This document shows positions 37,034 through 55,250 of a DNA stretch of 64,000 bases, piece after piece. This DNA is from Opitutia bacterium (GTDB lineage: Bacteria > Verrucomicrobiota > Verrucomicrobiia > Opitutales > Opitutaceae): NCBI GenBank assembly GCA_947474365.1, contig CANJIU010000026.1, forward strand, positions 1 through 64,000, read 5' to 3'. Position 1 is the stretch's first letter. Every line of letters begins with the position of its first letter. Under the pieces are notes generated by a model. It made no database searches. It was not told the DNA's origin and worked only from the letters and a program-made list of their open reading frames with translations. A program made the position numbers and the translations under genes.

Positions 37034-38857
37034 TTACTTCTCGATCAGGTGCTTTGCGGCGAGGGCGACGTAGTTTTCCCCCCGTGATTCCGATTTTTCC
37101 GCGGCCTTGAACAACGGCTGGAACGATGCCGGTCGATTGGGCAGATAAGTGAGGTAATTCAAAGCTTCGAGACGAAGTTCGGGGCGTTGATCCTTGCCGA
37201 GTGCTGCGGCCAGCACGGGCCACGCTGCTTCCGTGTTGCCCAGTCGGCCGGTCGCGTAGGCTGCTGCGATGCGGACTGAGCCGATCGGGTCCCGCAACAG
37301 GGGTGTGAGGTCAGAGAGTGCGGACTTTGACGCGTTCAAGGCGGAAATCGCACCCCAGAACCGGATTGTCGGCAACGGATCGCCCATGGCGGCTTTGAGT
37401 TCGGCAGCTTTCGGGGAGTCGCCGAGTTGCAGCCGGTCGACGATTTCGATGATGCGGGCGAGCGGATAGTCACGGTCATTGCGGCTGAATTCGGTCGGTG
37501 ACTTCTCTCCGCAGAGGTCGCGGAGGATCGGCTCCGGCATGAACCCCGTGTCGCGAATGCGCAGGAGATGCGCGTTATTGGCGGCGCGCATCCGCTCAAG
37601 CCTGGCCCGATGGGACGGGTCGGTGGCAAGATTGCGGACATTGTCGGGGTCGGAGGCACAGTCGAACAACTGCTCCGCCGGTTTGGGCTCGAAGAATGAG
37701 CGTTGGACCGCGGTGAGTTTTCCCTCGCCGCGTAGCCGGTCCCACTCCCGAGTTGACGACATCTTCCACAGATAGTTGACGTGCTGCATGATCGGGACGT
37801 CGGGCCGGTAGTTGCGGATGTAGCGCCAGCGACCGTCCGTGACTGCGCGAGAAAAGTCATAGCGTTCATCCATGCGGCCCCGGAAATTGTAGGTGAATTC
37901 CGGGGCGGCGCCGCGGGCCGGGCCGGCGAAGGCGCGGCCTTGGAAATAATCCGGAGCCTTCACGCCCGCGAGACTCAGTACGGTCGGGGCGAGATCCACC
38001 CAGTTGAAGAGTTCCTTGGTGCTTGAGCCGGCAGGCAGGGGGAACAGGTATTGGAATTTCTTCGGAAACCGAATCATGAACGACGGATGGGTGCCGTTTT
38101 CGAAGAGGAACCGTTTGCTGCGGGGGAGCACGCCGCCGTGGTCCGAGTAGTAGAAGATGATCGTATCGTCGGAGAGCCCGTCCGCTTCGAGTTCCGCGAG
38201 GACCTCGCCGATTTGGCGATCGGCCTCTGAAACCCGATCGTAATACTGCGCAATGTCCGCGCGAACTTCAGGGGTGTCGGGCAAATAGGCGGGGACGCGG
38301 ACTTTCGTGGCGTCGGTTTTGATCGCCATACGCTTGTGGAGCGAACTCTCGTGGCTTGCGGTGGTATTGAAGACGCTGAAGAACGGCTGTCCGGCCTTGC
38401 GGTTGCGCCAGTGCGCCTGATTGCCGTTTTGATCCCACGTGCCGGATAGGACCTCGGCATTGTAGTCGGTCTTGGCGTGATTGGAGGTGAAATAGCCGGC
38501 GTCGCGCAGGTAGGCGGGAAAGTACCGCATCCAGGAAGGCATGGGAACGTTGCTGCGCATGTGTTGCGTGCCGAGCGCAGGCGCAAACATCCCGGTGATG
38601 ATGCTCGCGCGGGTCGGGGCGCAGACGGCGGACGTGGAGTAGGCGCGTTCAAAGAGGATGCCCTCCTTTGCGAGGCGGTCGAAGTTCGGCGTGCGGGCGA
38701 GCGGGTCACCGTAGGCGCTGACGTAATTGTAGGTGTTATCTTCGGCCACGACCCAAAGAATGTTGGGACGGGCACCGCCTGGCGCCGGTTGGGCGTGGGC
38801 CGAAAAACCGGCCAAAAGGACCAGCGTCGCGATGAGTCGAAATGAATGACGGTTCAT
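37034..38857 (-). CDS. Sulfatase with C-terminal HEAT-like repeats
   Basis: A 607-aa exported sulfatase (start 38857, signal LIATLVLLAGFSAHA). Opening ILWVVAEDNTYNYVSAYG; formylglycine site SAVCAPTRASIITG (C-A-P-T-R); a metal-loop FYYSDHGGVLPRSKR. From about residue 480 come HEAT-type alpha repeats (ALNASKSALSDLTPLLRD, RIAAAYATGRLGNTEAAWPV, RLEALNYLTYLPN), which are rare on sulfatases and suggest partner binding. Divergent from the small gene at 39107; a 10-bp inverted repeat lies between. Confidence 0.92.
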   Translation of the reverse strand: MNRHSFRLIATLVLLAGFSAHAQPAPGGARPNILWVVAEDNTYNYVSAYGDPLARTPNFDRLAKEGILFERAYSTSAVCAPTRASIITGMFAPALGTQHMRSNVPMPSWMRYFPAYLRDAGYFTSNHAKTDYNAEVLSGTWDQNGNQAHWRNRKAGQPFFSVFNTTASHESSLHKRMAIKTDATKVRVPAYLPDTPEVRADIAQYYDRVSEADRQIGEVLAELEADGLSDDTIIFYYSDHGGVLPRSKRFLFENGTHPSFMIRFPKKFQYLFPLPAGSSTKELFNWVDLAPTVLSLAGVKAPDYFQGRAFAGPARGAAPEFTYNFRGRMDERYDFSRAVTDGRWRYIRNYRPDVPIMQHVNYLWKMSSTREWDRLRGEGKLTAVQRSFFEPKPAEQLFDCASDPDNVRNLATDPSHRARLERMRAANNAHLLRIRDTGFMPEPILRDLCGEKSPTEFSRNDRDYPLARIIEIVDRLQLGDSPKAAELKAAMGDPLPTIRFWGAISALNASKSALSDLTPLLRDPIGSVRIAAAYATGRLGNTEAAWPVLAAALGKDQRPELRLEALNYLTYLPNRPASFQPLFKAAEKSESRGENYVALAAKHLIEK

Positions 38858-38920
38858 GGAGGTCGAGGTTTTGAGGCGGGCGCCGAAGGGAGGCGACTCG
38901 GTTGGACATTTCGCCAGCAG

Positions 38921-38976
38921 ATCGCACCGAAGGTCAAGCGGGGTCCCACCGTTTGAAGGAGAGTCGTCGGTGCGAT
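38921..38976. promoter_or_regulatory. Perfect 10-bp inverted repeat in divergent promoter region
   Basis: ATCGCACCGA at 38921-38930 and TCGGTGCGAT at 38967-38976 are exact inverted copies, 36 bp apart, in the 249-nt gap between the minus-strand sulfatase and the plus-strand gene at 39107. It could be a two-site operator or a folded RNA leader. No promoter element stands out. Confidence 0.4.
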
Positions 38977-39106
38977 GATCCGAAAAAAAATTGCCAACTT
39001 GCTGCCAAATCGAATCAGCGGGCCCCGTGCGAAATCCGCGGCTTGTTTTTCGCGGTGCAAGTGACGATTTGGTCACATCGACTCGCTCAGCCGTCCCATC
39101 ACCCAG

Positions 39107-45975: not shown

Positions 45976-48225
45976 TTACCGCGGGTCGTTGATCCGTCCG
46001 AAGAACAGGCACGTCCCGCTGGCGCGGTGCTGGATGGCGAAGAGAAACGGCCGGTCAACGCGGACCACGACGGGTTGGATGGCGACCGGAACGGCGATTG
46101 AGGTCACCGCCACAATGCCAATCGCGGTGGCCGCGGCAGCCTCGGTCCCTTCCTCGTCGAGGGCGACAAAGGTCTGGTGAAACACCTTGGAAATCGCGAG
46201 GTAGTCGTCGGGCCGGCGCGGTGCCATCCGGTCAAAATTTGCACTGCCCATCGGCTGGTCGAAGGCCTGGTTCATCCCGAGGGCTCGGAATGTGTCGGCG
46301 AGGGACATCGTGGTGGCGTCGGTCTTGAACTTCGGCAAATAAAGCACGACGTCGCGGCGTGCGGTGTCGCCCAGTTTGGCCCAGCGGGCGAAATGGCCCG
46401 ATGTCAGTCGTGCGGCGGTGGCATCGATGTTCACTCCCTCGTCGGGCAGTGCGATGACGAGTTGGAGCCCGCGACCGAGGTAGTCGAGTGTGACGACGGT
46501 CATTCCGTCCTCGACTGCGTAGCCGAGCAACCCCGTCAATTGCATCGTCGAAACCTCCGGACTGCTTGTCGGCGTCGGATGAAAGGCGCGCGGCGCCGTG
46601 CCGGACTTGGGAAACGGCGTATTCCACGGCGCCTTCAGGTACAGCGCATTGACGAGCACGAGCCGGGTATCTTCGGTCACTCCGCCTGTGGGTATGAGAT
46701 TTTGAATCTTCTGCCGCGTTTGATCTTCAACCCAGGTGTTGATGGTGACACGTGCGCGCTCCGGGTCGTTCGCGAAGTTCACGGCTTGGAGCGGAGCATC
46801 GAAACCGTCACGCATCAGAGTGAGAAACGAGTCGCGAAACGGATAGTTGGGCTGGCCGAACAGTCGGTTGGCCGCGTTCCACTCAATCGGATCGGTCTTG
46901 GTGCCGGCCCGCGTCCGCGCATCCGCGAGTGGTTTGGAGTCGACCGCGATTTGCTCCAGTCCGCGGCGTAACGCGGCGAAACCCAGCTGCACCGGCGTGG
47001 TATCGGCGGGAAGCCGCAGCACCCGGCCCATCTCCTCGCGCGTTCCGCCCTCGGCACCCGCGTAAGCCATCGCGAAGGCGCTCTCGATCGAATAGGGCGA
47101 GATGATCAGGTTCTTGCCGACCGTGGCTTTGGACAGCTCGCGGAAAAGATCGAGCCCGAGGCTGTTGGTCGCCTGAGCAGCGTCGAAATCACCCTGCAAG
47201 ACCTCGCTGATTTCCGCCAGCGCCGCGCCGCTTTGGCCGGCGGCACCGCGGACTTGCAGCGTGTACGAACCGGCGGGAAGCGTCACCACCATCGCGGCGT
47301 CGCTCGGGCTCGTGAGCGCAAAGGCCCCGACGGCGAACTGGGCGTCTTGCACGCGACCGGCCGCCTCGGCGCCGCCGGCCTGCCAGTCGTCGTTGGCGGC
47401 GATGCGGGTGTTGCCCGAGTAGAGTTCAATCGTCGGATCGCGCAACGTTCCCGCGACGCCGAATTGCGCCAGGGTCGCACCGATGCCGCGGAGCAGCAGG
47501 GTCACGTTGCCTTCGCCGGCGACGACGAAGCCGACGACCATCAATCCTTCCCCGGATTCCACGATGGCGCGCGACGACAAATTGACGAAGCGCGCATCGG
47601 TGGACGCCGGCGCGGAGGCGGCGTCGTAGAATTCGAGCAATGCGACACCCGAGGTGTTGGCAGTCGAGGTGCAATGGGCGGTAAACGTCCCGGCGGTCGC
47701 TTCGCCGAGGAGCGCGGCGTCCCCGGGAGTGCCCTGGCTGGCAGTCGTGAGCGGAAACGCGCCGACGTAGGCCGAGGCGGCGGTGGGTGCAGTGCCGGTC
47801 GTGGTTTGGGCGGCGAGTGATTCGCTGCGGAAAATCTCAAGCTTCGGGTCACGCAGGGCGTTGGTGACGCCAAAGCGCGTGAGACCGGGGCCGACGGCGC
47901 GCACGAGCATCGGAAGGGTGCCGGAACCCTGAACGACGGCGCCGGCAATCAGCGTGTTCGCGCCGCTGCCGGCCTTGGCCCGGATGGAAACATTGGTGAG
48001 GCGGGCGGTGCGGGCCGTCAGGCGTGCGCGGGAAAAATCGACGGTGGTTGAACCGTTCCAGGCGGCGTCGTTGATGATCGTCGCGACGGCCGGCGTGGCG
48101 GGGGACTGGGCGCGGAGCAGTGCGCCGGTGAAAGCGAAGGCGATCGCGAGGAAACGTCTCGCACGGCGGCACGCAGACGGAGGGGCTGAATGGCTTGGGG
48201 CAGATGACGGGAGGGAGAAGTACAT
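45976..48225 (-). CDS. Exported serpin fused to verrucomicrobial beta-sandwich repeats
   Basis: A 749-aa protein with signal peptide. Residues about 75-340 hold two beta-sandwich repeats (LTNVSIRAKAGSGANTLIAG, VRAVGPGLTRFGVTNALRDP; then VNLSSRAIVESGEGLMVVGF, LRGIGATLAQFGVAGTLRDP), a module common in Verrucomicrobiota. Residues 345-749 form a complete serpin: NLIISPYSIESAFAMAYAGA, VNALYLKAPWNTPF, VALDEEGTEAAAATA, VDRPFLFAIQ. The hinge GTEAAAATA is the sequence of an inhibitory serpin. Counting P15 Gly in the hinge, P1-P1' falls at V707-T708, which suggests elastase-like or chymotrypsin-like targets. Encoded with a DmpA-type peptidase. Confidence 0.93.
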   Translation of the reverse strand: MYFSLPSSAPSHSAPPSACRRARRFLAIAFAFTGALLRAQSPATPAVATIINDAAWNGSTTVDFSRARLTARTARLTNVSIRAKAGSGANTLIAGAVVQGSGTLPMLVRAVGPGLTRFGVTNALRDPKLEIFRSESLAAQTTTGTAPTAASAYVGAFPLTTASQGTPGDAALLGEATAGTFTAHCTSTANTSGVALLEFYDAASAPASTDARFVNLSSRAIVESGEGLMVVGFVVAGEGNVTLLLRGIGATLAQFGVAGTLRDPTIELYSGNTRIAANDDWQAGGAEAAGRVQDAQFAVGAFALTSPSDAAMVVTLPAGSYTLQVRGAAGQSGAALAEISEVLQGDFDAAQATNSLGLDLFRELSKATVGKNLIISPYSIESAFAMAYAGAEGGTREEMGRVLRLPADTTPVQLGFAALRRGLEQIAVDSKPLADARTRAGTKTDPIEWNAANRLFGQPNYPFRDSFLTLMRDGFDAPLQAVNFANDPERARVTINTWVEDQTRQKIQNLIPTGGVTEDTRLVLVNALYLKAPWNTPFPKSGTAPRAFHPTPTSSPEVSTMQLTGLLGYAVEDGMTVVTLDYLGRGLQLVIALPDEGVNIDATAARLTSGHFARWAKLGDTARRDVVLYLPKFKTDATTMSLADTFRALGMNQAFDQPMGSANFDRMAPRRPDDYLAISKVFHQTFVALDEEGTEAAAATAIGIVAVTSIAVPVAIQPVVVRVDRPFLFAIQHRASGTCLFFGRINDPR

Positions 48226-48398: not shown

Positions 48399-48470
48399 CT
48401 CCAGCAGTTGCACGATGGTCATCGATGCATGTCTCGCCGGGCCAAAAAGCGGGATGCGCTCCTTCGAACT

Positions 48471-49463
48471 GTGAACCCTACCGATCTCATCGTTCAGCTT
48501 CGCTCCGCCGGACTGATTGGAAGCGATGACGTCCGTCTCTCCCCGCTCACCGGCGGCGTTTCGAGCGATATCTGGCTGGTCGAGTCCGCCGTGGGGCGAT
48601 GCGTCGTCAAATCTGCGCTGGCGCGTCTGCGGGTTCGCGACGAGTGGTTTGCCGACGTCTCGCGCAACGGCGTCGAGCAGGCGTATTTGTCCTATGCCGC
48701 GGGCGTCGTGCCCGGCGCGGTGCCGCGGGTGCTGGCCGCCGAACCGGCGTCGGGTTGGTTTGCGATGGAGTATTTGGGCGATGGCTTTTCCAACTGGAAA
48801 CAATCGCTCCTCCAGGGCGATGCTTCGCTACTCCCGGCGCAGCGCGCGGGCGACGTGCTCGGACGGCTGCATCGTGCGTCGTGGGGAGATCCGGTGGCGC
48901 GGGCGCAGTTCGCCACCTTGGGAAATTTCCACGCCTTGCGGATAGAGCCCTACCTGCTGACCACCGCCCGCCGCGTACCGGCGGCGACCGCCTTTCTCAC
49001 GACGGAGGCCGAGCGGCTCGCGGGCACGTCCCTCGCGCTCGTACACGGGGACTATTCGCCGAAAAACCTGCTCGTTTCTGCCGACCGGGTGGTCGTGCTC
49101 GACGCTGAGGTGGCCTGGTTCGGCGATCCCGCGTTCGATCTGGCGTTCATCCTGAATCACCTGCTGCTGAAGTCGCTCCTCCACCATCGGCAGCCTGAGC
49201 CGCTGCTCGAACTCGTGCCAACATTTTGGTCGGCTTATGGAGCCGCCCTTGGCGCAAATGCGGATGCCGAACTCGAACGTCGTTTCGTGCGACTGCTGCT
49301 CTGCTTGATGCTGGCGCGCGTGCATGGAAAATCACCGGTCGAATACCTGGCGGCGAAGCCGCAGGAATTCGTCACCCGATTCGTGCTCGAGCACCTGGCG
49401 AATCCGCCGTCGACTCTGCCCGATCTGGTCCGTGCCTGGCGGACCGCTCTTTTCCGACTATGA
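48471..49463 (+). CDS. Aminoglycoside-phosphotransferase-fold kinase
   Basis: A 330-aa kinase when started at GTG 48471; ATG 48429 is also possible. It has the APH/choline-kinase fold: ADP site WLVESAVGRCVVKSALARLR with Lys, then HGDYSPKNLL (catalytic Asp, metal Asn) and VVLDAEVAWFGDPAFDLAFI (second metal Asp). Such kinases phosphorylate hydroxyls of small molecules such as homoserine, fructosamine or methylthioribose; antibiotic resistance is only one use. The stop overlaps the start of the enolase-like gene (ATGA), so both are translated together. This is the context that suggests a metabolic role. Confidence 0.85.
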   Translation: MNPTDLIVQLRSAGLIGSDDVRLSPLTGGVSSDIWLVESAVGRCVVKSALARLRVRDEWFADVSRNGVEQAYLSYAAGVVPGAVPRVLAAEPASGWFAMEYLGDGFSNWKQSLLQGDASLLPAQRAGDVLGRLHRASWGDPVARAQFATLGNFHALRIEPYLLTTARRVPAATAFLTTEAERLAGTSLALVHGDYSPKNLLVSADRVVVLDAEVAWFGDPAFDLAFILNHLLLKSLLHHRQPEPLLELVPTFWSAYGAALGANADAELERRFVRLLLCLMLARVHGKSPVEYLAAKPQEFVTRFVLEHLANPPSTLPDLVRAWRTALFRL

Positions 49464-50758
49464 AGATTCAATCCGTTCACGCGTTGCAGATCTTTGACAG
49501 TCGGGGGCATCCCACGGTGGAAGCGATCGTCGAACTCGAAAACGGCGTACGTGGCCGCGGACTGGTTCCGTCCGGCGCATCAACGGGGAGCCATGAGGCG
49601 ATCGAATTGCGCGACGGCGATCCGGCGCGCTTTCGCGGCAAATCGGTTTTCCGGGCCGTCGCGCACGTCGACGGTGAGATCGCCCGCGCGGTCGTCGGTC
49701 GCGATGCTTTCGACCAGGCGGCAATCGACGACCGATTGGTCCGGCTCGACGGCACGTCCGACAAATCGCGCCTCGGCGCCAACGCCCTCCTGGGGGTTTC
49801 GATGGCGGTCGCCCAGGCTACGGCAGCGGCGCGGGCCGTTCCTCTCTACGAATCTCTCGGTGGCGGCGCGGGGACGTTGCTGCCTCTGCCCGAGATTCAG
49901 ATTTTCGGCGGCGGGAAACACGCCCATGGCCGGATCGACATTCAGGACTTCATGGTGATGGCGCTGCGGGCCCGGACCTACGAGGAGGCGTTGGAAGTGA
50001 CGTTCAATGTGTATCACGCCGCCGCGGATGTCATGCGCGGGCGGGGTGGCCTTGCCGGGGTGGCCGACGAGGGCGGGTACTGGCCCAACTTTGATCGCAA
50101 CGAAGACGTGTTCGAGGCGCTGCTCGCCGCGATCGTCCAGGCTGGATACACGCCCGGCCGGGAGGTCGGGCTGTCGCTCGACATCGCGGCGACGGATCTA
50201 TTCCGCGAGGGGCATTATGAGTTGGGCCGGGAAAAGCGGCGCTTCACCTCGGAGCAGTTTTCTGCGCTGCTGCTGGGCTGGATGGAGAAATACCCCATCG
50301 TTTCGATTGAGGATCCGATGGCGGAGGATGATTGGGACGGCTGGCGCCGGATGAACGTCGCGATTGGCCGCCGCTGCCAGCTCATCGGAGACGACCATTT
50401 CACCACGAATCTGGCGCGCATCGATCGCGGCATCGCCGCCGGCACGGCCAACGCGGTTTTGATCAAGCTCAACCAAATCGGCACGGTGACCGAGACCCTT
50501 CGCGCCATCCGACGCACCCAGGCGGCAGGCTGGCTGCCGGTCGTATCGGCCCGGTCGGGTGAAACGGAGGACGCGTTCATTGCGCATCTCGCGGTGGCCA
50601 CCAACGCCGGTCAGCTCAAGGTGGGCTCGTTCAGTCGCAGCGAACGGATGGCCAAGTGGAACGAGGTGCTCCGCATTCACCAGCACCTCGGCGCGCGCGC
50701 CCGGTTTGTCGGAGCGGGGATTTTTTCCGAACACGGCATCACGCTGCCATCGCGATAG
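49460..50758 (+). CDS. Divergent enolase-like enzyme
   Basis: A 432-aa homologue of enolase. Conserved: PSGAST with S38, E204 (DEGG), D241, E284, D311/D312 (GDDH) as metal ligands, and K336 and K387. Changed from true enolases: the GGEHA loop is GGKHA (K153), IQEF is IQDF (D163), and SHRSGET is SARSGET (A364 for the substrate His). These sites contact the substrate and its phosphate, so a substrate other than 2-phosphoglycerate is likely, or activity on it is weak. Normal length; ends without the usual acidic tail. It is coupled to the upstream kinase by ATGA. Confidence 0.88.
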   Translation: MKIQSVHALQIFDSRGHPTVEAIVELENGVRGRGLVPSGASTGSHEAIELRDGDPARFRGKSVFRAVAHVDGEIARAVVGRDAFDQAAIDDRLVRLDGTSDKSRLGANALLGVSMAVAQATAAARAVPLYESLGGGAGTLLPLPEIQIFGGGKHAHGRIDIQDFMVMALRARTYEEALEVTFNVYHAAADVMRGRGGLAGVADEGGYWPNFDRNEDVFEALLAAIVQAGYTPGREVGLSLDIAATDLFREGHYELGREKRRFTSEQFSALLLGWMEKYPIVSIEDPMAEDDWDGWRRMNVAIGRRCQLIGDDHFTTNLARIDRGIAAGTANAVLIKLNQIGTVTETLRAIRRTQAAGWLPVVSARSGETEDAFIAHLAVATNAGQLKVGSFSRSERMAKWNEVLRIHQHLGARARFVGAGIFSEHGITLPSR

Positions 50759-50770
50759 CAGCGTCCCGAC

Positions 50771-51607
50771 TCAGGGGCGCATCGTCTTCTGCAGCCAGGT
50801 CACGACCTTGTCCTTGAAGTCCGGTGCGAGCGGCGGCCAGGGCAACATGCCGTGCGGGCCGTCCTTGATCGTGAGCAATTCGGCGGGCACTCCAGCGGCG
50901 CGCAAACGGGAGAGCATGTCGACCGACTGCTGGTACGCGACGCTCTGGTCGGCCGTGCCATGCACGAGGAGAAAGGGCGGTAGGCCGCGCTTCACAAAAT
51001 TCATCGGCGAGGCATCGTACATCAGTTTCACCATCGTGTCGTCCTGCGTTTCCCGGCCGAAAAGTTTGTTGAAGGACGGAGTGACGCCTGCGCGGCGTTT
51101 GGCTTCGGCCGCGAAATCGAACACTCCGTAGAACGGCACAATGGCCGCGAGACGCGTTGATGCGTCGGCCCGCACCGCTGCCAATGCCACGAGGTGTCCG
51201 CCCGCCGACTCGCCCGACAAGGCGATGCGCTTGGGATCGACGTGATATTCCGCGGCGTGCGCCTTCACCCAGCGGATGGCGGTCTCGACATCCTCGACCT
51301 GCGCGGGATGGTTGAATTTGGGCGCGAGACGGTAGTTGATCGAAAACCAGGCAAACCCGGCGGCGGACAGCGGCTCGTGCAGGGGAGCCATGTAGCCTTT
51401 CTTGGGACCGCCGTCCTTGTCGCCGTTGGTCCAGCCGCCGCCGTGAACCAAAATCACCGCGGGAAACGGCCCCTTGCCGCTGGGCACGGAGGCATCGAGT
51501 CGGAGGCTGACACCGGCGGCCTGTCCGTATTCGATGTCTTTGACGAGTTCGGCGCGCAATGCGCCGACGGTCGCGACGGTCAGAAAGATGAGGAGGAGTT
51601 TGTTCAT
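50771..51607 (-). CDS. Secreted alpha/beta hydrolase, BD-FAE/esterase-lipase type
   Basis: A 278-aa protein from ATG 51607 (signal LLLIFLTVATVGALRA). Marks: VILVHGGGWTNGDKDGG (oxyanion), SINYRLAP, ALSGESAGGHLVALAA (nucleophile GESAGG), LLVHGTADQSVAY (Asp) and IKDGPHGM (His). Its closest kin are feruloyl-esterase-like and acetylxylan esterases. It converges with the enolase-like gene 12 nt apart. Confidence 0.93.
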   Translation of the reverse strand: MNKLLLIFLTVATVGALRAELVKDIEYGQAAGVSLRLDASVPSGKGPFPAVILVHGGGWTNGDKDGGPKKGYMAPLHEPLSAAGFAWFSINYRLAPKFNHPAQVEDVETAIRWVKAHAAEYHVDPKRIALSGESAGGHLVALAAVRADASTRLAAIVPFYGVFDFAAEAKRRAGVTPSFNKLFGRETQDDTMVKLMYDASPMNFVKRGLPPFLLVHGTADQSVAYQQSVDMLSRLRAAGVPAELLTIKDGPHGMLPWPPLAPDFKDKVVTWLQKTMRP

Positions 51608-51687
51608 CGGGAGGGAGTTAAGGGGTATGAATGCGGCAAGAGGAAGGGGAAGCAGGTCTGGTTTTTGGCCGAGACGCAGCGAGGGGA

Positions 51688-52077
51688 TTACCAAATTACC
51701 TCTACTTTGTAGCGATGGAAAGCGGCGTCGGAGGTCAGAATGGGAATGTCCAGGATTTGAGCTGTGGCGATGAGCAGGCGGTCAAACGGATCCTGATGGT
51801 GCGATGGCAAATCGGCACTGCGAAAGAGTGCTGCGTCCGAGATTGCATCGTAGGTGAGTTCCGATTGGCGGATGCGTTTGTGCAGGAAATCGCGGGGTGA
51901 TTCGCCATTGAGCGGGAGCTTTCCCGTCCGGTATTTGAGACAGATCTCCCAGGTCGAAACTTGGCTGAACAGGAACTGGTGATCGGTGGACTTGAGGAGA
52001 TTGCGCACCACCGGGGAAAGTCGTCCCGGATCGCCCCACATGAAAAGGGCAACGTTCGTGTCGAGGAGTGCCCTCAT
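51688..52077 (-). CDS. vapC: VapC-type PIN-domain toxin
   Basis: A 129-aa PIN-domain RNase of a type II toxin-antitoxin pair. Opening MRALLDTNVALFMWG has the first acidic residue (D of LLDTN), a second in VSTWEICLK (E), and a third in HQDPFDRLLIATAQ, then LTSDAAFHRY. The start overlaps the antitoxin stop (ATGA), the normal arrangement of this pair. Confidence 0.9.
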   Translation of the reverse strand: MRALLDTNVALFMWGDPGRLSPVVRNLLKSTDHQFLFSQVSTWEICLKYRTGKLPLNGESPRDFLHKRIRQSELTYDAISDAALFRSADLPSHHQDPFDRLLIATAQILDIPILTSDAAFHRYKVEVIW

Positions 52078-52340
52078 TCCGGCTGCTTGGTATCCACGCC
52101 GAAGAGCGCGGCAATGGAGGCATTGGTTGCTGGCGAGTCCCAATCGTCACGCCAAAGCACCCGGCCGACATCCTGTCCCATGCGGCGTTGGCGCACGGCC
52201 TTCGCTTTGGCTTTGGCCAAGGGACGTATTTCAGCAAACGGCTTGTTCCGATCGCACAGCAGCAGGGTCTCGCCGGCTTTCACGCGTTTCGCGTAGCGGG
52301 AAAGATGGGTCTTGGCCTCGTGGATGTTGATTTTGAGCAC
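52074..52340 (-). CDS. Phd/YefM-type antitoxin
   Basis: An 88-aa antitoxin that should bind the PIN toxin and the shared promoter. Start GTG 52340 gives VLKINIHEAKTHLSRYAKRV, the usual Phd N-terminus; a TTG at 52394 is a poor alternative. Marks: KAGETLLLCDRNKPFAEIRP. The C-terminal part (RRMGQDVGRVLWRDDWDSP) is the toxin-binding tail. Overlaps the toxin start by 4 nt. Confidence 0.88.
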   Translation of the reverse strand: MLKINIHEAKTHLSRYAKRVKAGETLLLCDRNKPFAEIRPLAKAKAKAVRQRRMGQDVGRVLWRDDWDSPATNASIAALFGVDTKQPE

Positions 52341-52394
52341 TGCGAGAGACTTAGGCTGGTCGCCAACTTGGTCAAGTAAGGGTGCAGCGCGCAA

Positions 52395-52463: not shown

Positions 52464-55250
52464 TTACTTCTTCGCGTCGGCCACCGCGGCCTGCGCCGCC
52501 GCGAGGCGGGCGACCGGCACGCGATAGGGCGAGCAGGAGACGTAGGTGAGCCCGATCTTGTGGCAGAACTTCACCGAATCCGGATCACCGCCGTGCTCGC
52601 CGCAGATGCCGAGCTTGATGTCAGGCCGCTTGCTGCGGCCCTTGGCGATCGCGATCTGCATCAACTGGCCGACGCCGGTCTGGTCGATCGAGGCGAACGG
52701 ATTCTTCTTCACGATTTCGCTCTCGGCGTAGGCCGGGAGGAACGAGCCCGAGTCGTCGCGGGACATGCCGAGGCAGGTCTGCGTCAGGTCGTTCGTGCCG
52801 AAGCTGAAGAACTCCGCCGTCTCGGCGATCTCGTCGGCGGTGAGGGCACCGCGCGGGACTTCGATCATCGTGCCGACGCTGTAGGCGATCTTGGTCTTCT
52901 TCTCGGCCTGGACGGCCTTGGCGACCTCGTGAACGAGCTCGACCTGGAGATCGAGTTCCTTCTTGAAGCCGACGAGCGGGATCATGATTTCGGGCTTCGC
53001 CTTGAAGCCGGCCTTGTTGGCGTCAGCGGCGGCCTCGAACACGGCGCGGGCCTGCATCGCGGTGATCTCCGGATAACGGATACCGAGGCGGCAGCCGCGG
53101 AAACCGAGCATCGGATTGAACTCATGCAGCTCGTGGACGCGCTTCATGATCTTGTCGACCGGGATGCCGAGTTTTTGTGCGAGATCAACCTGCTGCTCCT
53201 TCGCGTGCGGGAGGAACTCGTGCAACGGCGGATCGAGGAAACGAATCGTCGCCGGGTAGCCCTTGAGCGCCTTGAAGATTCCGAAGAAATCGTCGCGCTG
53301 GTAGGGGAGGAGCTTCGCGAGGGCGGTCTGGCGCGCCTCGAGCGAGTCGGCGAGGATCATCTCGCGCATCGCGTCGATGCGGTTGCCTTCGAAGAACATG
53401 TGCTCCGTGCGGGTGAGGCCGATACCGACGGCGCCGAACGCGATGGCGTTCTGCGTCTGCTCGGGAGTGTCGGCGTTGGTGCGGACGCTCAGCTTGGTGG
53501 CCTTTTCGCACCACTTCATCAGCTGGGCGTAGCTCTTGAACTTCTCGGTCGCCTGCGCGGCCTTGTCGTTGTGGAGCAGGCCGGCGATGATTTCGGACGG
53601 AGCGGTCTTGATCTGGCCGGCGTACACCGTGCCCGACGTCCCGTCGATCGAGAGGAAGTCGCCCTCGTTGAAGGTCTGGCCCGCGATGGTGGCGGTCTTC
53701 TTGTCGTAGTCGATCGAGACGCCGGCGGCGCCGCACACGCAGACCTTGCCCATCTGGCGGGCAACGAGTGCGGCGTGCGAGGAGACGCCCCCGCGTGCGG
53801 TGAGAATGCCCTCGGCGGCGATCATGCCGCGGAGATCTTCCGGCGAGGTCTCGACGCGGACGAGAAGAACCTTTTCGCCCCGGTCAGCGGCGGCGACCGA
53901 ACGCTCGGCGTTGAAATAGATCTTGCCGGTGGCGGCTCCGGGGCCGGCGGGAAGGCCGGTGGCGATCACGGTGGCCTTCTTGACCTCGCTGAGGTCGAAG
54001 ATCGGCGCGAGCAATTGCTCGAGCTGATCGGCCGGGTTGCGCATGATGGCGGTCTCCCAGGTGATCAGCTTCTCCTTCACCATATCGATGGAGAATTTCA
54101 GCGCGGCGGCGGCGGTGCGCTTGCCGTTGCGCGTCTGGAGCATGAACAGCTTGCCTTCCTGGATCGTGAACTCGATGTCCTGAACGTCCTTGAAGTGCTT
54201 CTCGAGCGTGGCGCGAACCTTGAGGAGTTCGGCATACGACTTCGGCATCTGGTCCTTGAGCTTGAGGACGGGCTCGGGGGTGCGGACGCCGGCGACGACG
54301 TCCTCGCCCTGCGCGTTGATGAGGAACTCACCGTAGAACTCGTTGACGCCGTTGGCGGGATTGCGTGTGAACGCGACGCCGGACCCGGACGTGTCGCCCG
54401 TGTTGCCGAACACCATCGCCTGCACGTTGACCGCGGTGCCCCATTCGGTGGGGATGTTGTACTTGCGGCGGTAGACGATCGCCCGGTCGTTCATCCAGGA
54501 ACCGAAGACCGCGCCGGCCGCGCCGCGCAGCTGGTCCCACGGATCGTTCGGGAAGGATTTGCCGGTGCGCTCCTTGACCAGCGCCTTGAAACGGACGACG
54601 AGCTCCTGCTGGTCCTGGGCGGTGAGCTTGGAGTCCTCGATGTCGGCGTGATATTTTTCGTGCTTGAAGGTATGGATGACCGTCTCGAACGGCTCGTGAT
54701 CCTCGCCTTCCTTCTTCTGCACGCCCATGACGACGTCGCCGTACATCTGGATGAACCGGCGGTAGCAGTCCCACGCGAAACGCTCGTTCTGCGTCGCCTT
54801 GACGAGGGCGAGCACGCTGTGGTCGTTGAGGCCGAGGTTGAGAATCGTGTCCATCATGCCGGGCATCGAGTCGCGGGCGCCCGAGCGGACGGCGACGAGG
54901 AGCGGCATGCCTTCGGTGGCGCCGAACTTCGTCCCCATGATCTTCTCCATGTTGACGACGCCCGCTTCCATCTGCGCCTGCAGGGAGGCCGGATAGGTGC
55001 GCTTGTTGGCGTAGTAATAGGTGCAGACCTCGGTCGTGATCGTGAAGCCCGGAGGAACCGGGAGACCGATGCGCGTCATCTCCGCGAGATTGGCGCCCTT
55101 GCCGCCGAGCAGCGGTTTCATCGAGCCGTCACCATCGGCGCGACCGGCGCCCCAGGTGTAGACGTATTTGGTGCCCTTGGAGGCGGAATTCTTGGCAGGC
55201 GAGGCTTTGGCCTTCGCGGCTGGTTTCTTGGCTTTGGATTTGGCGGCCAT
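52464..55250 (-). CDS. ppdK: Pyruvate, phosphate dikinase
   Basis: A 928-aa enzyme that interconverts pyruvate, ATP and phosphate with PEP, AMP and diphosphate. It is about 25 residues longer than usual because of a Lys/Ala-rich N-terminus ([18 protein letters not shown]) before YVYTWGAG. Marks: [40 protein letters not shown], the phospho-His motif [16 protein letters not shown], and the C-terminal active Cys in [10 protein letters not shown]. It has its own strong terminator. The enolase-like protein and this one both touch PEP chemistry, but they are 1.7 kb apart in different directions. Confidence 0.96.

What the first reader, a model, noticed from the sequence alone, without database searches (positions are those of the whole stretch)
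48471..50758. Coupled kinase and altered enolase: a candidate new pathway
An APH-fold kinase overlaps (ATGA) an enolase whose substrate-binding residues are changed (K153, D163, A364) while the catalytic Lys, Glu and metal ligands stay. The simplest reading is phosphorylation of a small hydroxy acid followed by water elimination, analogous to glycerate to phosphoglycerate to PEP. Enolase-like proteins with changed substrates are known from phosphinate natural product routes, so a non-glycolytic use has precedent.
Basis: partly seen in the sequence, partly recalled or inferred. Interest (0 to 1): 0.72.

Follow-up and report, generated by a model that had tools for sequence, protein, structure and literature searches.

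The report
Kinase-paired enolase with altered pocket
A widespread gene pair, a small-molecule kinase plus a look-alike of the glycolytic enzyme enolase with a rebuilt active site, probably turns an unusual small hydroxy acid into phosphoenolpyruvate, and databases label it as ordinary enolase.

Summary
Confirmed and extended. The kinase (48471-49463, APH fold) and enolase homologue (49460-50758) overlap by ATGA; an ordinary eno lies elsewhere in the genome. The enolase belongs to a subfamily (90 distinct sequences seen; Verrucomicrobiota, Pseudomonadota, Bacteroidota, Actinomycetota, Planctomycetota, haloarchaea). Catalytic Lys345, Lys396, Glu211 and metal ligands are kept in 90 of 90, but Glu168->Asp, His373->Ala and Gly->Ala before DEGG are also fixed in 90 of 90, against 0 of 22 ordinary enolases. 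K153 is not diagnostic. The kinase lies in the same locus for 80 of 83 members and 0 of 22 ordinary enolases (many with short flanks); all 32 plasmid records with the kinase have an enolase homologue within 7 kb. In 26 of 96 loci (not deduplicated) a D-2-hydroxyacid dehydrogenase sits directly beside the pair, in 4 another keto-acid reductase; aldolases, acylpyruvase-like hydrolases, once a LarA racemase homologue and, in rhizobia, PEP carboxylase also occur. Best reading: a D-2-hydroxy acid is 2-O-phosphorylated, then beta-eliminated to PEP. The altered residues lie at the leaving-hydroxyl side, so the C3 group is probably not plain OH; methoxy is my unproven guess. Plain glycerate remains the main rival. 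No activity was measured.

The parts
48471..49463 (+). APH-fold small-molecule kinase (GTG start; in-frame ATG at 48429 possible); catalytic HGDxSPKN and LDxE motifs present
   Evidence: alignment with 25 relatives; model pLDDT 95.3; nearest entries 5-methylthioribose kinases
49460..50758 (+). enolase homologue of the 'SARS' subfamily, overlapping the kinase stop (ATGA)
   Evidence: model pLDDT 94.1; TM 0.95, 48% identity to PDB 5ohg enolase; one branch separates SARS from SHRS rows, SH-aLRT 100, quick method
49946..49948 (+). codon of D163 (ordinary enolase: Glu, yeast E168), taken to be a contact of the C3 hydroxyl of 2-phosphoglycerate
   Evidence: D in 90 of 90 SARS rows, E in 22 of 22 ordinary; [quoted passage not shown]
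50063..50065 (+). codon of A202 (ordinary: Gly before DEGG)
   Evidence: A in 90 of 90, G in 22 of 22
50549..50551 (+). codon of A364 (ordinary: His, yeast H373), SHRS to SARS
   Evidence: A in 90 of 90 (the property by which the rows were sorted), H in 22 of 22
50621..50623 (+). codon of V388, beside catalytic K387 (ordinary KTG, here KVG)
   Evidence: V 87, I 3 of 90; ordinary T 21, A 1 of 22

Best explanation
The pair is a two-step catabolic module. The kinase transfers phosphate from ATP to the 2-hydroxyl of a small D-2-hydroxy acid, and the enolase homologue abstracts the C2 proton (K336, two Mg ions) and expels the C3 substituent with E204 as acid, giving phosphoenolpyruvate (or a close PEP analogue). 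The hydroxy acid is supplied by different upstream routes: reduction of a 3-substituted pyruvate by a D-2-hydroxyacid dehydrogenase or ApbA-type reductase, an acylpyruvase-type hydrolase, an aldolase, or a LarA-type racemase. Because the invariant changes lie at the C3-hydroxyl side of the 2-phosphoglycerate site while the phosphate, carboxylate and metal sites stay, the C3 group is probably not the plain OH of glycerate. My preferred, unproven candidate is a 3-O-methyl group (2-phospho-3-O-methylglycerate to PEP plus methanol). Shown here: subfamily, residues, pairing, context. Inferred: both reactions and the substrate.
For: Kinase in the locus for 80 of 83 distinct subfamily enolases, 0 of 22 ordinary ones. 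Reciprocal: 32 plasmid records match the kinase; 20 were read and all 20 have an enolase homologue near it, 12 are inferred from hit positions within 7 kb. Catalytic residues invariant in 90 of 90; E168D and G->A in 90 of 90 rows sorted by H373A, absent in 22 of 22 ordinary. One branch separates the types. D-2-hydroxyacid dehydrogenase directly beside the pair in 26 of 96 loci, ApbA reductase in 4, neither in 8 ordinary loci. LarA homologue in a same-strand run with kinase and enolase. PEP carboxylase next to reductase and kinase in four rhizobial loci. Sugar or sugar-acid contexts: DhnA aldolase, PfkB kinase and a sulfoquinovose-isomerase-like protein; galactonate dehydratase and an aldolase. 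In M. tuberculosis enolase the E163A mutant (same motif as D163) is non-functional. Ordinary eno found in 7 of 8 pair-bearing genomes, twice as fragments.
Against: No activity measured. The dehydrogenase is adjacent in a minority of loci, and many loci, the window's included, hold the pair alone. One of 83 members (L040) has 10 kb on each side without a kinase match. G002 (98% complete MAG) showed only the subfamily enolase. No methanol- or sulfite-specific gene is named in the 15 plasmid stretches that bear annotation (5 of the 20 read bear none), only generic alcohol dehydrogenases; PQQ alcohol dehydrogenase is over cut-off in 4 of 8 pair-bearing genomes, not the window's. E168D keeps the charge, so loss of 2-PG activity is not certain; one paper has this Glu touching the carboxylate; the role of H373 is recalled, not read. 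The PEP carboxylase link was seen only in four closely related rhizobial loci.
Confidence: 0.55

Rival explanations
1. Plain glycerate module: the kinase is a non-homologous D-glycerate 2-kinase and the enolase a co-regulated isoenzyme that makes PEP from 2-phosphoglycerate, as in the serine cycle or glucarate catabolism.
For: Hydroxypyruvate-reductase-like dehydrogenase + kinase + enolase + PEP carboxylase in Rhizobium is the order of the serine cycle (recalled); GarL-like aldolase near the pair in Verrucomicrobiota; LarA could racemise glycerate; TIGR01060 eno matches at 523.6 bits, over its cut-off of 300.
Against: It does not explain why residues at the C3-hydroxyl side are changed and fixed in 90 of 90, nor why every kinase looked at on plasmids has its own enolase homologue near (20 of 20 read, 12 more by position) although housekeeping eno would do the second step.
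Confidence: 0.28
2. 3-sulfolactate module: kinase makes 2-phospho-3-sulfolactate and the enolase expels sulfite to give PEP, the reverse of archaeal ComA.
For: One cluster (L031/L032) resembles sulfo-EMP (recalled): a protein with weak similarity to sulfoquinovose isomerase (109.8 bits, cut-off 700), PfkB kinase, DhnA/LsrF-type aldolase; tripartite tricarboxylate transporters near some pairs; a loop Arg is gained.
Against: Two acidic residues at the leaving-group site are kept (E204, D163), which should repel a sulfonate; no sulfite exporter or oxidase is named in the 15 annotated plasmid stretches; ring-cleavage clusters do not fit.
Confidence: 0.06
3. C3-branched substrate: water is lost, but from a 2-phospho-3-hydroxy acid with an extra group on C3, giving a PEP analogue.
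For: E->D and H->A would free space at C3; outside rhizobia no context seen demands PEP itself.
Against: A PEP analogue would need a dedicated downstream enzyme; the window locus and others carry the pair alone.
Confidence: 0.1
4. Biosynthetic role (phosphonate or phosphinate type).
For: A far more divergent enolase-kinase pair on two Enterobacter plasmids lies, in L109, in what looks like a biosynthetic cluster.
Against: That relative has lost the DEGG glutamate and SARS motif; SARS-type pairs sit with catabolic genes and transporters where context was annotated.
Confidence: 0.04

Closest known systems
Enolase / phosphopyruvate hydratase (EC 4.2.1.11; NCBIfam TIGR01060)
   Same: Fold (TM 0.95, 48% identity to PDB 5ohg), metal ligands, catalytic Lys and Glu, phosphate-site Arg and Ser
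   Different: E168->D, H373->A, G->A before DEGG, T->V/I after the catalytic Lys, loop Arg; found with a kinase; additional to an ordinary eno in 7 of 8 genomes
5-methylthioribose kinase (MtnK) and other APH-fold small-molecule kinases
   Same: Fold (TM over the query 0.85 to 9a5i, 0.82 to 2pun) and HGD / LDxE catalytic motifs
   Different: 15-18% identity; far below the MTRK cut-off (51.3 vs 275 bits); partner is an enolase homologue
Glycerate 2-kinase + enolase of the serine cycle / glucarate catabolism (recalled)
   Same: Order of chemistry: 2-keto acid reductase, 2-kinase, enolase, PEP carboxylase
   Different: Kinase of the APH fold; enolase with altered leaving-group side
ComA phosphosulfolactate synthase (recalled)
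   Same: Interconverts PEP and a 2-phospho-3-X-lactate
   Different: Different family and direction; no sulfonate evidence here

Membership tests
Enolase (phosphopyruvate hydratase) | Enolase N and C domains, full length | tested here: met
Enolase (phosphopyruvate hydratase) | Metal ligands and catalytic K345/K396/E211 | tested here: met
   90 of 90
Enolase (phosphopyruvate hydratase) | E168 and H373 at the C3-hydroxyl side | tested here: not met
   D and A in 90 of 90; E and H in 22 of 22 ordinary
Enolase (phosphopyruvate hydratase) | Turnover of 2-phosphoglycerate | not testable with these tools
   needs protein
APH-fold kinase superfamily | APH domain with HGDxxxxN and metal-binding Asp | tested here: met
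5-methylthioribose kinase | MTRK equivalog score | tested here: not met
   51.3 bits vs cut-off 275
Glycerate 2-kinase | Homology to known glycerate kinases | tested here: not met
   No glycerate-kinase family among the Pfam (E up to 0.001) or NCBIfam (E up to 0.1) matches; activity untested
Methylaspartate ammonia-lyase / MR-MLE branch of the enolase superfamily | Own curated scores as best match | tested here: not met
   MR_MLE_C 32.3 bits is over its cut-off 29.4 but far below Enolase_C 306.4; B_methylAsp_ase 21.5 vs cut-off 286.15

The most novel reading that the evidence does not exclude
An enolase that expels something other than water: the pair converts 3-O-methylglycerate, left over from O-methyl sugars or methoxylated aromatics (via 3-methoxypyruvate), through 2-phospho-3-O-methylglycerate to PEP plus methanol, an O-demethylation route that needs neither oxygenase nor methyltransferase.
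Probability: 0.2. Interest if true: 0.87.

Novelty: new variant of a known kind. Interest (0 to 1): 0.66.

Why it matters
NCBI's eno model accepts this protein (523.6 bits over a cut-off of 300), and deposited records call its relatives phosphopyruvate hydratase, so a separate catabolic pathway in several phyla may be hidden behind a glycolytic name. A two-gene module that delivers PEP from an unrecognised hydroxy acid would explain part of the fate of modified sugars or aromatics, and would show how enolase, thought nearly invariant in substrate, changed its leaving-group side. The proposal can be tested with two small proteins.

Tried and rejected
Considered and set aside: degraded or dead enolase (catalytic residues invariant in 90 of 90); chance neighbours; opposite-handed substrate (phosphate-site Arg and Ser and the base Lys unchanged; inference); methylthioribose kinase.

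Led nowhere: ten paper searches in the open-licence PMC library. Searches (methoxypyruvate and O-methylglycerate terms; gene-cluster terms) returned no papers; two papers, neither on this pair by title; others (20 listed of 264; 5 of 5; 12 of 21; 15 of 263; 25 of 67; 8 of 26) listed none whose title or abstract start describes the pair; unlisted papers were not seen. PQQ alcohol dehydrogenase as a methanol marker was not discriminating. The promoter scan found none, and its five terminator-like sites are within the genes. The phylum search found the kinase in 3 of 288 genomes including the window's; in the rows shown at most 7 first-look candidates per genome were scored, so this may be low. 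The models came without coordinates, so no pocket was measured.

Rows dropped or weak: two ordinary enolase rows (L011, L098) drop out of the tree because their translation held a stop, but are in the counts. The 96 loci are not deduplicated (for example two assemblies of one Rhodococcus strain) and include two Enterobacter loci and three without a detected kinase. Of the 22 ordinary enolases, 14 had about 1.5 kb of flank or less, and of the other 8 four had 0.2-2.1 kb upstream, so their zero is weaker evidence.

Full report
What is there. The window carries a kinase gene at 48471-49463 (GTG start; an in-frame ATG lies at 48429) and an enolase homologue at 49460-50758, overlapping by ATGA. Pfam gives APH (E 9.4e-14) and Enolase_C plus Enolase_N (E 2.6e-91 and 2.9e-50). 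The serpin gene upstream (45976-48225) and the alpha/beta hydrolase downstream (50771-51694) are both on the minus strand, so the pair stands alone here. The same genome has an ordinary eno on another contig (G000:C22).

A subfamily, not a single oddity. Collapsed to distinct sequences, 90 enolase homologues (the window's included) carry SARS where 22 ordinary enolases carry SHRS. In 90 of 90: D at window 163, A at 202, A at 364 (the sorting criterion), and unchanged S41, H154, Q162, E204, D241, E284, D311, K336, R365, S366, K387. In 22 of 22 ordinary rows: E, G and H at the three changed places. Position 388 is V or I in 90 of 90 and T or A in ordinary rows; an Arg in the loop between H154 and Q162 occurs in 89 of 90 and 0 of 22. 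In a quick maximum-likelihood tree of 111 rows a single branch with SH-aLRT 100 separates the two types; the changed columns were included, and a few rows are long. Rows come from Verrucomicrobiota, Pseudomonadota, Bacteroidota, Actinomycetota, Planctomycetota and haloarchaea.

The kinase goes with it. Of 83 distinct SARS rows examined, 80 have a homologue of the window kinase in the locus (E up to 1e-5), 61 of these within 150 bp upstream on the same strand; of the three without, two (L046, L063) are cut by the contig start and one (L040) has 10 kb on each side and none. Of 22 ordinary enolases none has it, though most had short flanks. In the other direction, 32 plasmid records match the kinase; 20 were read and all 20 hold an enolase homologue close by, 18 of SARS type and 2 of a divergent Enterobacter type (in L118 the enolase match is split in two pieces). 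For the other 12 an enolase match lies within 7 kb by coordinates; its type was not read. In the window's phylum the kinase was found in 3 of 288 genomes, and among near relatives 6 of 57 genomes, the window's included, hold a close homologue of the window enolase (70-100% identity). This patchiness suggests an accessory module passed between lineages (inference).

Neighbours. A D-2-hydroxyacid dehydrogenase lies within 300 bp on the same strand as kinase or enolase in 26 of 96 loci and an ApbA-type reductase in 4; neither does in 8 ordinary loci, one of which has a dehydrogenase further off. Against the Rhizobium protein it is 29-38% identical in the eight loci where it follows the enolase and 48-97% in those where it precedes kinase or enolase, which suggests repeated recruitment (inference). 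In Rhizobium CIAT894 PEP carboxylase, dehydrogenase and kinase stand in a row with gaps of 88 and 21 bp, near an HpaD-like ring-cleaving dioxygenase (272.3 bits, cut-off 321.4), cupin and FMN reductase; PEP carboxylase occurs in four rhizobial loci. Roseibium and Paracoccus loci follow the pair with an FAH-family hydrolase, SDRs and a sugar ABC transporter. The FAH protein of the Sphingobium locus scores best against 2,4-didehydro-3-deoxy-L-rhamnonate hydrolase (151.4 bits, cut-off 500). Five verrucomicrobial loci show a GarL/HpaI-like aldolase; two others a DhnA-type aldolase, Gfo/Idh oxidoreductase, sulfoquinovose-isomerase-like protein and PfkB kinase. Halomarina has galactonate dehydratase, an aldolase and a CtBP-like dehydrogenase on the other strand. 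A divergent opitutaceal pair follows a LarA-type racemase, a MobA-like protein and a dicarboxylate symporter in one same-strand run. The common denominator I see is a small 2-hydroxy acid; several loci (cation efflux, PPK2, SRP54-type or regulator neighbours) give no such hint.

Mechanism. One paper states that Glu166 and Glu207 interact with the hydroxyl of 2-phosphoglycerate (PMC4667285, passages seen); another that Glu211 (yeast) helps the hydroxide leave (PMC4450660, passages seen). In M. tuberculosis enolase alanine mutants of Glu163, Glu204, Lys335 and Asp241 were non-functional (PMC10619443, section 2.3 read, other passages seen); its primers place Glu163 in the DIQEF motif, that is at window D163. 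That paper also has Glu163 touching the carboxylate. The role of H373 near the hydroxyl is recalled, not read. The sites for phosphate, carboxylate, metals and proton abstraction are intact and the leaving-group side is changed, so I infer 2-O-phosphorylation followed by beta-elimination of a C3 group other than plain OH, yielding PEP. Methoxy is preferred because the acid E204 stays, a His and part of a Glu side chain are removed, and small hydrophobic residues (A202, V388) appear; it would also fit both sugar-derived and aromatic-derived contexts. No gene-level marker of methanol handling supports it, so it stays a guess.

Against. No activity was measured. Plain glycerate is not excluded. 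G002 shows only the subfamily enolase in a 98% complete MAG; in two of the seven other genomes the ordinary eno is fragmentary. Many loci give no context. The PEP carboxylase link rests on four close rhizobial loci.

Models. AlphaFold2 models are confident (enolase pLDDT 94.1; kinase 95.3). Nearest folds are enolases (5ohg, TM 0.95, 48% identity) and methylthioribose kinases (9a5i, TM 0.85, 18% identity).

Novelty. Known folds and likely a known type of chemistry, but a fixed subfamily with its own kinase that I did not find described in the listings of the ten paper searches made (open-licence PMC library only, lists capped).

Noticed in passing
window 52464-55250 (-): Pyruvate phosphate dikinase-like gene (PPDK_N, PEP-utilizers), a PEP-handling enzyme, 1.7 kb from the enolase homologue; possibly coincidence.
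   Followed up: partly
window 51688-52394 (-): PIN-domain protein with a Phd/YefM-like upstream partner (the latter at 23.5 bits, below the Pfam cut-off of 29.8): likely toxin-antitoxin pair.
   Followed up: partly
L109 8268-20006 and L125 6268-8825: Enterobacter plasmids carry a far more divergent enolase homologue (DEGG to EKGG in L109) divergently oriented to an APH kinase; in L109 with a U32 protein, 2-hydroxyacid dehydrogenase, aminotransferase, haem-oxygenase-like enzyme, M14-like peptidase and nucleotidyltransferase: looks like a biosynthetic cluster. In L125 the annotated kinase is shorter and overlaps an IS1 transposase gene.
   Followed up: partly
G002 (relative of the window's genome): Only the subfamily enolase was found in this 98% complete MAG, no ordinary eno; assembly gap or real loss.
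   Followed up: partly
L027, L048, L055, L063: MAG contigs titled Akkermansia muciniphila or Bordetella parapertussis look like environmental bins with doubtful species names.
   Followed up: no
L025, L026, L028 upstream of the pair: A gene scoring (L026 copy, 294.8 bits, cut-off 240) as subclass B3 metallo-beta-lactamase sits between the HpcH-type aldolase and the kinase in Verrucomicrobiota; its role here is unknown.
   Followed up: no
window 37034-39076 (-): Sulfatase with a C-terminal HEAT-repeat match.
   Followed up: no
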